Source: Candidatus Nezhaarchaeota archaeon
Lineage (GTDB): Archaea; Thermoproteota; Methanomethylicia; Nezhaarchaeales; WYZ-LMO8
Assembly: GCA_030055465.1 (NCBI GenBank)
Contig: JASFYF010000001.1
Location: 599,179-663,178, forward strand
Length of the DNA stretch: 64,000 bases
Direction: 5' to 3'
In this document: one piece after another, positions 15,133 through 16,833 of the stretch
How the letters are laid out: each line of letters opens with the position of its first letter
Numbering within the stretch: position 1 is the first letter of the stretch
The notes under the pieces: model-generated
What the model was told of the DNA's origin: nothing
Seen by the model: the letters and a program-made list of their open reading frames with translations, nothing else
Databases searched by the model: none
Position numbers and translations under genes: made by a program

Positions 15133-16833
15133 CTAAGGGCTCGCCCCATCGGTGCTCCTCTTCGCCTTGCTGTATTCAAGGCAAGCCTTCACGAAACCCA
15201 AGTAGAGCGGTGATGGTCTATGCGGTCTCGACTTGAATTCGGGGTGTGCTTGGGTGGCCACAAAGAATGGGTGATTTCGAAGCTCTATGAATTCAACCCT
15301 CCTTTTATCGGAGCTGTAACCGGAGAAAACCATGCTGTGGCTTTGTAAAACATGCCAATAAGCAGGGTTAACCTCATACCTATGCCTGTGTCTTTCGAAT
15401 ATCACTGGCCTCCCGTAAAGCTCGAAAACCTTTGTTTCCGGCTCAAGTATGCTTGCGTGCGCGCCCAACCTCATGGTGCCTCCCATATCCTTTACGCCTC
15501 GCTGTTCGGGCAACAGGTCCACGACTGGGTGAGGAGTTGAAGGGTTGAGCTCTCTTGTATTGGCTTCTTTAAGACCAACAACGTTGCGCGCAAACTCCAC
15601 AACAGCCAGCTGCATTCCGAAGCATATGCCGAGGAATGGCACTTTCTTCTCCCTAGCGTACCTGATGACCTTCATCTTTCCCTCGCTTCCCCGCGTCCCG
15701 AAACCCGGGAGAACCATTATCCCGTCACAGCGCTCGAGGATTCTCTGGGCCTCCTCCGGAATCTCCTCTCTCTGCTCTAATTGGGTTGCTTCGAGCCAGG
15801 CCATGTTAACCCTGGTCTTGAGGGATGCCCCTGCATGTTTTAGGGCCTCTACTATGCTTATATAGGAATCCTTCAACCTGGTGTACTTGCCGCACATGCA
15901 CACGCTTATTTCGTGGTCAAAGCTCTTGTAGTTGTCGACCACTCCCTTCCACAAAGACCAATCGGGCTTCGAGGACCTAAGCGATAGGCGGCTGCACACG
16001 TAGTCCCCCATACCCTGCTCGTCAAGTATCATCGGTAGCTCGTATATGCACTCAACATCGTAGGAGGTGAAGACGGCCTCCTCCGGCACATTGCTGTACA
16101 GCGCTATCTTCTTCTTGGACTCATCATCTAGTGGGCACCGACACCTTGCTACAATTATGTCGGGCTGTATGCCTATACGCCTAAGCTCTTGCACGCTGTG
16201 CTGAAGCGGCTTCGTCTTGAATTCTCCCGTAACTCCTAGTATGGGTACTAGGGCAACGTGGACGAACAAAGTGTTAAAAGGTCCCTCTTCAAGCTTCATT
16301 TGCCTTATGGCCTCCAAGAACGGCAAACCCTCTATGTCGCCGGTGGTTCCCCCGCACTCCACAAGCGTAACGTCGACGTTGCTTCGCTCGGCAACCATCC
16401 GTATCCTTTTTTTAACCTCATCTGTTACGTGTGGAATTATTTGGACGCATTTGCCTAGGTACTCGCCTTTCCTCTCCGACTCTATAACCGAGAGGTATAT
16501 TTGGCCCGTTGTGATGTTGTTCTCCCTTGACAAATCTATATCGAGGAAGCGCTCATAGTGACCTAGGTCAAGGTCCACTTCGCCACCATCTTCGGTGACG
16601 AAGACCTCCCCATGCATATATACCCGGCCCTAAGCACAGCTTAGGACCTATGGGTTCATGGTCCCGGCATCTACATTGATGTTTACCCGACCCTTATCGA
16701 GGCGGGTCTATGGGTCAATCTTTATCGCGGTAATGGAGAGGCCCCTAACTTGAAGCATTTTGCCGAGCGAGGCCGTCACGGCGCCTTTACCCACGCTTGA
16801 CAGAACCCCTCCCGTAATGAATATGTATTTCAT
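15133..16833 (-). CDS. pyrG: CTP synthase, interrupted by two predicted BHB introns
   Basis: Converts UTP to CTP with glutamine. Predicted structure: exon 1 16833-16710, exon 2 16682-16650, exon 3 16619-15133, totalling 1644 nt and 547 residues, the normal size. Exon 1 encodes MKYIFITGGVLSSVGKGAVTAS and ends in KIDP. Exon 2 encodes YINVDAGTMNP. Exon 3 begins YMHGEVFVTEDG and carries the synthetase and the C-terminal glutaminase (GICFGMQL, AHPEF). Without splicing, the frame stops at TAG right after KIDP and again after TMNP. A conventional caller would start at ATG 16617 and lose the ATP-binding loop. Each junction restores the invariant sequence exactly. Confidence 0.93.
16620..16649 (-). 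other. Predicted pyrG intron 2 (30 nt, BHB)
   Basis: Read on the minus strand: central helix ACCC (16655-16652) with GGGT (16625-16622), bulges ATA (16651-16649) and ATA (16621-16619). The inner helix GGTCCTAAGC pairs with GCTTAGGGCC around loop TGT. Cutting after the second base of each bulge removes 30 nt and joins CCA-T to AT-ATG, giving Pro-Tyr-Met. The unspliced frame reads CCA TAG. Confidence 0.88.
16683..16709 (-). other. Predicted pyrG intron 1 (27 nt, BHB)
   Basis: Minus strand: central helix ACCC (16715-16712) with GGGT (16688-16685), bulges ATA (16711-16709) and AAA (16684-16682). The inner helix GACCC pairs with GGGTC around a 10-nt loop. Cutting after the second bulge base removes 27 nt and makes CCA TAC ATC AAT (Pro-Tyr-Ile-Asn), the conserved CTP synthase sequence. 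Unspliced it reads CCA TAG. The outer exon helix is short (2 bp). Confidence 0.88.

What the first reader, a model, noticed from the sequence alone, without database searches (positions are those of the whole stretch)
16683..16709. 27-nt bulge-helix-bulge intron in the CTP synthase gene
The pyrG frame stops at TAG just after KIDP, inside the invariant KxDPYINVD motif. Removing 27 nt rebuilds it exactly. The excised piece lies in a bulge-helix-bulge fold (ACCC/GGGT, bulges ATA and AAA, inner GACCC/GGGTC), and cutting after the second bulge base gives the correct codon. Published archaeal mRNA introns that I know of are in cbf5 and an XPD-type helicase; I know of none in pyrG.
Basis: partly seen in the sequence, partly recalled or inferred. 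Interest (0 to 1): 0.95.

Follow-up and report, generated by a model that had tools for sequence, protein, structure and literature searches.

The report
Twin spliced introns in archaeal CTP-synthase gene
In this uncultured archaeon and its five sampled family relatives, the gene for CTP synthase is broken at the same two points by 19-33-base inserts that are predicted to fold into the shape cut by the tRNA-splicing enzyme and so are likely removed from the messenger RNA, which would add a new gene to the very few archaeal genes known to be spliced this way.

Summary
Confirmed, and larger than reported. The 27-nt insert at 16683-16709 (- strand) in pyrG is real. All 6 sampled genomes of the family (Nezhaarchaeota kin) carry both at the same sites; 8 of 12 insert lengths are not multiples of three, which rules out read-through or a protein insertion in the relatives. 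All 12 fit a bulge-helix-bulge (BHB) geometry, 3 with one A.C mismatch. The other 3 genomes of the order lack them. A third pyrG insert site (P-loop, 21-26 nt) occurs in 5 genomes of 3 other families of the class. The class also carries the known cbf5 intron (15 of 21 genomes) and two EndA paralogues. Best reading: EndA-spliced mRNA introns of the cbf5 kind, in a new essential gene, twice around an 11-codon exon. Weak points: no RNA evidence; the window's own 67%-complete assembly shows one EndA paralogue lacking the active-site His and no RtcB; insert 1 here is not the minimum-energy fold. No further members of this intron family were found.

The parts
16710..16833 (-). pyrG exon 1 (ATG 16833; MKYIFITGGVLSSVGKG...KIDP plus first base of the Tyr codon)
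16683..16709 (-). intron 1, 27 nt, cut after second base of each 3-nt bulge
   Evidence: coordinates; geometry, shuffles; pattern
16650..16682 (-). pyrG exon 2, 33 nt (11-codon micro-exon: rest of Tyr, INVDAGTMNP, start of Tyr)
15133..16619 (-). pyrG exon 3 (YMHGEV... to stop); the ATG-initiated ORF 15133-16617 (494 aa) is what gene callers report
16685..16715 (-). BHB of intron 1: central helix ACCC 16712-16715 / GGGT 16685-16688; inner helix GACCC 16704-16708 / GGGTC 16689-16693; bulges ATA 16709-16711 and AAA 16682-16684
   Evidence: not the minimum-energy fold here
16622..16655 (-). BHB of intron 2: central helix ACCC 16652-16655 / GGGT 16622-16625; 10-bp inner helix 16639-16648 / 16626-16635; bulges ATA 16649-16651 and ATA 16619-16621

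Best explanation
The CTP-synthase gene here contains two short inserts that are most likely pre-mRNA introns, predicted to be cut out at bulge-helix-bulge folds by the tRNA-splicing endonuclease EndA and likely sealed by the RtcB ligase. Shown by sequence: two inserts at fixed sites, family-wide, with BHB geometry, whose joint removal rebuilds an otherwise missing catalytic motif. Inferred: exon ACCC pairs with intron GGGT (or GGGC) as the central helix; EndA cuts after the second base of each 3-nt bulge; RtcB joins exon 1 (124 nt), an 11-codon exon 2 and exon 3 into a 547-codon message. Both splices are needed, because exon 1 holds the P-loop and the ORF that gene callers report (494 aa) lacks the first 55 residues or so. 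The introns behave like the cbf5 intron of the same class: gained once in the ancestor of this family and kept.
For: Both sites interrupted in 6 of 6 family genomes; lengths 27,19,22,19,20,20 and 30,33,33,31,31,31; 8 of 12 not multiples of three, yet excision restores the protein each time. The nearest pair, G003 and G004, has insert 1 of 19 against 20 nt. pyrG is single-copy: one place in G000, one gene (one hit or two adjacent pieces) in G001-G005. BHB geometry in 17 of 17 pyrG inserts (12 here, 5 at the third site) with 0 or 1 of 20,000 shuffles as good for each; two-sided pair changes in 8 inner-helix columns (1 at site 1 plus a C-G/T-A/T-G column, 2 at site 2, 4 at site 3; pair lists). 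Central pairs at probability about 0.5 or more in 13 of 16 folded. The exon sequence ACCCATA is fixed at both sites in 6 of 6, against 7 and 13 of 93 distinct intron-free loci. The Tyr codon at site 1 exists only after joining. Two EndA paralogues in 17 of 21 class genomes, 5 of 9 order genomes... see full report for G000; RtcB in 20 of 21. The same method finds the known cbf5 intron at one residue in 15 of 18 class genomes aligned and 6 of 10 outside. The window holds an intron-bearing tRNA-Ile.
Against: No RNA data. In G000 the BHB of intron 1 has probability about 0.18, in G002 0.34, in G005 0.40. The outermost central pair is A.C in 3 of 12 (G002 intron 1; G003 and G005 intron 2), and the outer exonic helix is only 0-2 bp in direct register. 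G000's assembly shows one EndA paralogue, without the active-site His, and no RtcB; it is 67% complete, so this may be missing sequence. In G000 alone both inserts are multiples of three (27, 30), so the frame argument rests on its relatives. Whole-region folding z-scores are modest (-1.5 to -2.3).
Confidence: 0.93

Rival explanations
1. The stops are read through (for example TAG as pyrrolysine) and the inserts are translated as a 9- and a 10-residue protein insertion.
For: In G000 all three in-frame stops are TAG and both inserts are multiples of three.
Against: In relatives 8 of 12 inserts are not multiples of three, so the protein after them would be out of frame; other genomes have TAA and TGA there too. 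The inserts would split the invariant DPYINVD motif. Intron-internal sequence varies while pairing is kept.
Confidence: 0.02
2. Ribosomes hop over the inserts (translational bypassing) instead of RNA being spliced.
For: It would tolerate any insert length and in-frame stops, and hairpins are typical of bypass sites (recalled).
Against: At site 1 no Tyr codon lies downstream of the insert; TAC is formed only by joining RNA across it, and no Pro landing codon precedes the downstream exon (sequence). The same class uses an EndA-type intron in cbf5 with the same geometry.
Confidence: 0.03
3. Assembly error or pseudogene: the inserts are artefacts or the gene is dead.
For: Most of the genomes are metagenome assemblies.
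Against: The same two sites in six independently binned genomes (named ones from several projects), unbroken protein similarity elsewhere (378-394 of 541 residues identical to the G007 protein), one monophyletic group, and a structured, covarying insert.
Confidence: 0.01
4. BHB cleavage happens but regulates the message (5' truncation or circular RNA) rather than joining the exons.
For: EndA cleaves a BHB in the 5' UTR of Haloferax HVO_1309 mRNA (PMC7714728, passages).
Against: No other complete CTP synthase was found in G000, and a product starting at MHGEV lacks the P-loop region; accurate joining gives exactly the conserved codon at both sites in 6 of 6.
Confidence: 0.01

Closest known systems
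cbf5 pre-mRNA intron of Desulfurococcales and Sulfolobales (Watanabe 2002; Yoshinari 2006; Yokobori 2009, PMC2738675)
   Different: Other gene (pyrG), two introns in one message around a 33-nt exon, a different archaeal class, and no RNA proof here.
Archaeal tRNA introns
   Same: Same fold logic and presumed enzymes; one lies in this window (tRNA-Ile, 5085-5099).
   Different: The host RNA is an mRNA with no tRNA fold around the site.
Haloferax HVO_1309 5'-UTR BHB (PMC7714728, passages)
   Same: EndA processes a BHB in an mRNA.
   Different: There it is in the 5' UTR; here the inserts interrupt codons and must be removed precisely.
Group I/II introns and inteins
   Same: Insertion at the most conserved motifs of an essential gene.
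   Different: At 19-33 nt far too short for a ribozyme or an intein, and no encoded endonuclease.

Membership tests
EndA-spliced BHB pre-mRNA intron (cbf5 kind) | Insert interrupts a conserved ORF; excision restores the protein | tested here: met
   6 of 6 family genomes, both sites
EndA-spliced BHB pre-mRNA intron (cbf5 kind) | 4-bp central helix with 3-nt bulges, cuts after the second bulge base | tested here: met
   17 of 17 pyrG inserts, counting 3 with A.C as the outermost central pair
EndA-spliced BHB pre-mRNA intron (cbf5 kind) | BHB is the preferred RNA fold | tested here: inconclusive
   central pairs at about 0.5 or more in 13 of 16; 0.18 for intron 1 of the window's own genome
EndA-spliced BHB pre-mRNA intron (cbf5 kind) | Pairing kept through two-sided changes | tested here: met
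   pair lists: two-sided changes in 8 inner-helix columns over three sites; central helix nearly invariant, so silent
EndA-spliced BHB pre-mRNA intron (cbf5 kind) | Host encodes a hetero-oligomeric EndA and a ligase | tested here: inconclusive
   Two EndA paralogues in 17 of 21 class genomes and RtcB in 20 of 21; G000 itself shows only the His-less paralogue and no RtcB, at 67% completeness
EndA-spliced BHB pre-mRNA intron (cbf5 kind) | Spliced mRNA observed | not testable with these tools
   no RNA data
Group I/II intron or intein | Ribozyme core or protein-splicing domain | tested here: not met
   Inserts are 19-33 nt; no such family in the Rfam scan of the window at gathering thresholds

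The most novel reading that the evidence does not exclude
pyrG is a landing ground for mobile BHB introns in Methanomethylicia: introns 1 and 2 are copies of one element that reverse-spliced into the same exon word ACCCATAY twice, by pairing of exon ACCC with intron GGGT, giving the first archaeal message with two spliced introns and an 11-codon micro-exon; a separate invasion hit the P-loop in sister families.
Probability: 0.25. Interest if true: 0.88.

Novelty: new member of a known kind. Interest (0 to 1): 0.78.

Why it matters
Archaeal mRNA splicing has rested almost wholly on one gene, cbf5 (a 2020 paper still calls it the one further example: PMC7714728, passage). A second, essential metabolic gene with three independent-looking sites, two of them in one transcript, would show that EndA-type introns can invade ordinary coding genes repeatedly, and gives pairs of intron-bearing and intron-free relatives in which gain can be studied. 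It is also a practical warning: the six closest database proteins (P0001-P0006) all start at MHGEV, about 55 residues short, and two of them carry the plain NCBI name CTP synthase.

Tried and rejected
Stop read-through, bypassing and assembly error were weighed and rejected on the relatives' insert lengths. Genome-wide intron load: a single-genome BHB-plus-frame scan of 380 kb of G000 gave 775 hits with no clear outlier; its best hit (stretch coordinate 297187-297227) was read by hand and its frame runs open through the site (a thiolase-like ORF), so it is chance. A paired junction screen of 444 kb of G000 against 800 kb of G004 (rRNA region left out) listed 29 matches: the top one is pyrG intron 2; the other 28 I judged by eye to be conserved coding sequence read in a wrong frame, or chance. 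The screen asked for 12 open codons on both sides, so it missed pyrG intron 1 by design, and G000's cbf5 was outside the sample. Pattern ACCCATAGN{6,34}GGGYADA over nine whole genomes: 14 matches, 12 of them the pyrG introns, 2 others without an inner stem by eye; 0 in G006-G008; 3 for the reversed control pattern. Phylum survey: 373 of 398 genomes have pyrG, but the match list is cut, so absence elsewhere in the phylum is not shown; 18 genomes with weak or no match were looked at again: apart from contig ends, G386 has three overlapping pieces and G374 a C-terminal break, neither pursued, and 3 have no match. A plasmid tblastn was uninformative. Structure prediction was not used.

Full report
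What is there. pyrG (CTP synthase) lies on the - strand, ATG at 16833, stop at 15133. The frame meets TAG after KIDP and twice more near MNP (three TAG). I wrote a splice-aware protein-to-DNA aligner and ran it with the intact PyrG of G007, a genome of the same order. With both out, a 547-codon reading frame results. It also reported a 12-nt gap near residue 337 and end effects at the C-terminus, which are ordinary protein length differences and alignment ends.

Family-wide. All six genomes of the family have both inserts at the same residues: 27,19,22,19,20,20 nt and 30,33,33,31,31,31 nt for G000-G005. 8 of 12 are not multiples of three. In G004 and G005 the two lengths add up to 51, so only the 11-codon exon would be out of frame without splicing; in G001-G003 everything downstream would be. 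G000 alone (27, 30) would not exclude read-through. The other three genomes of the order (G006-G008) are uninterrupted.

Spread in the class. Of 40 class genomes 37 have pyrG; 26 give an unbroken match without stops and 11 are interrupted: the six above, and G009, G012, G014, G016 and G018, which carry a 21-26-nt insert at a third site, in the P-loop (SSxGK|G), again with BHB geometry. Of 116 loci scanned for the N-terminal 110 residues, 101 were clean, 14 interrupted and 1 scored too low; after merging identical sequences 93 clean loci remain (L032 and L037 there are one contig). The tree of 37 spliced PyrG proteins puts the six in one clade (100/100); the five third-site genomes fall in two clades around an unresolved fork, so one or two gains.

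Fold. In 17 of 17 pyrG inserts, with the cut sites fixed, there is a 4-bp central helix, 3-nt bulges on either side and a 4-11-bp inner helix; 0 or 1 of 20,000 shuffles of each insert scores as well. The outermost central pair is A.C in three (G002 intron 1, G003 and G005 intron 2). The outer exonic helix is short (0-2 bp in direct register; a CAUG/UAUG helix with one bulged A is predicted for intron 2 of G000), which resembles the unconventional BHB of cbf5 described in PMC2738675 (section 8). RNA folding of 16 of them gives the central pairs a probability of about 0.5 or more in 13; the exceptions are intron 1 of G000 (0.18), G002 (0.34) and G005 (0.40). Two-sided pair changes occur in inner-helix columns at all three sites. 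The exon word ACCCATA is present at both sites in 6 of 6, against 7 and 13 of 93 intron-free loci; shared descent explains part of this, but the same six vary freely at the P-loop codons, whereas 4 of 4 third-site loci read GGG-AAA-GGT there.

Machinery. PF01974 (EndA): at least one hit in 21 of 21 class genomes and two in 17; one in G000, G005, G010 and G020. The first paralogue matches the catalytic subunit of solved heteromeric enzymes (3p1z_B, E 2.5e-50; 3ajv_B has Ala where it has the active-site His), the second is best matched by 5x89 and 1a79 and has Gly at that His (catalytic and structural roles are recalled). G000 has only the second kind, and no RtcB, which 20 of 21 have. At 67% completeness this is probably missing sequence, but it is not shown. 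The window does contain an intron-bearing tRNA-Ile.

Positive control. Cbf5, the one archaeal mRNA with an established intron, is split at GGTL|D in 15 of the 21 class genomes (18 were splice-aligned, the rest judged), with 19-23-nt inserts, and at the same residue in 6 of 10 genomes aligned from elsewhere in the phylum. G000's cbf5 intron is 22 nt. f6 genomes and G010 lack it, and lack pyrG introns too.

How widespread in the genome. A pattern drawn from the twelve introns, run over nine whole genomes, finds those twelve and two other matches; the reversed control pattern finds three. A partial two-genome junction screen found only pyrG intron 2. So the family of introns looks confined to pyrG; unrelated introns could have been missed.

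Literature. Ten searches of the held open-access library gave no pyrG intron; Nezhaarchaeota with intron gave 0 papers. PMC7714728 (passages) names cbf5 as the only other reported BHB intron and adds a 5'-UTR case in Haloferax. PMC2738675 (passages) says that introns in other protein-coding genes had been predicted but not confirmed; I did not see which genes, and subscription papers are not held, so priority for pyrG is not proven. PMC12397907, PMC13149111 and PMC4090602 were seen as passages only.

Origin (inference). Introns 1 and 2 share their ends and the exon word ACCCATAY, and cbf5 also splits after ACCC in many genomes; this suggests copying by reverse splicing into ACCC sites, but shared structural demands could produce the same.

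Noticed in passing
window 5049-5138 (-), intron 5085-5099: ARAGORN calls tRNA-Tyr(ata); removing 15 nt gives a perfect anticodon arm CTCGG-CTGATAA-CCGAG, so it is likely an intron-bearing tRNA-Ile(GAU).
   Followed up: partly
L197 (G000:C1:478600-480200): G000's cbf5 carries a 22-nt insert at GGTL|D, the site at which 6 of 10 aligned genomes elsewhere in the phylum are also interrupted.
   Followed up: yes
L012, L018, L020, L024, L117: Third pyrG insert site in the P-loop, 21-26 nt, in three other families of the class.
   Followed up: yes
L220, L221 (G040:C11, about 292484-294060): Cbf5 of G040 has, besides the usual intron, a gap of about 1.5 kb inside one 797-aa open frame, possibly an intein.
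   Followed up: no
P0001, P0003, P0004: Truncated CTP synthases starting at MHGEV whose C-termini differ by eye from the six genomes, suggesting further species with intron 2.
   Followed up: partly
L118-L133 (G000:C1:1-320000): ARAGORN finds no tRNA in 320 kb, and Rfam finds nothing at gathering score in the first 140 kb; unexplained.
   Followed up: partly
G000 whole assembly: Single 1.02-Mb contig rated 67% complete, without an RtcB hit and with one EndA paralogue.
   Followed up: partly
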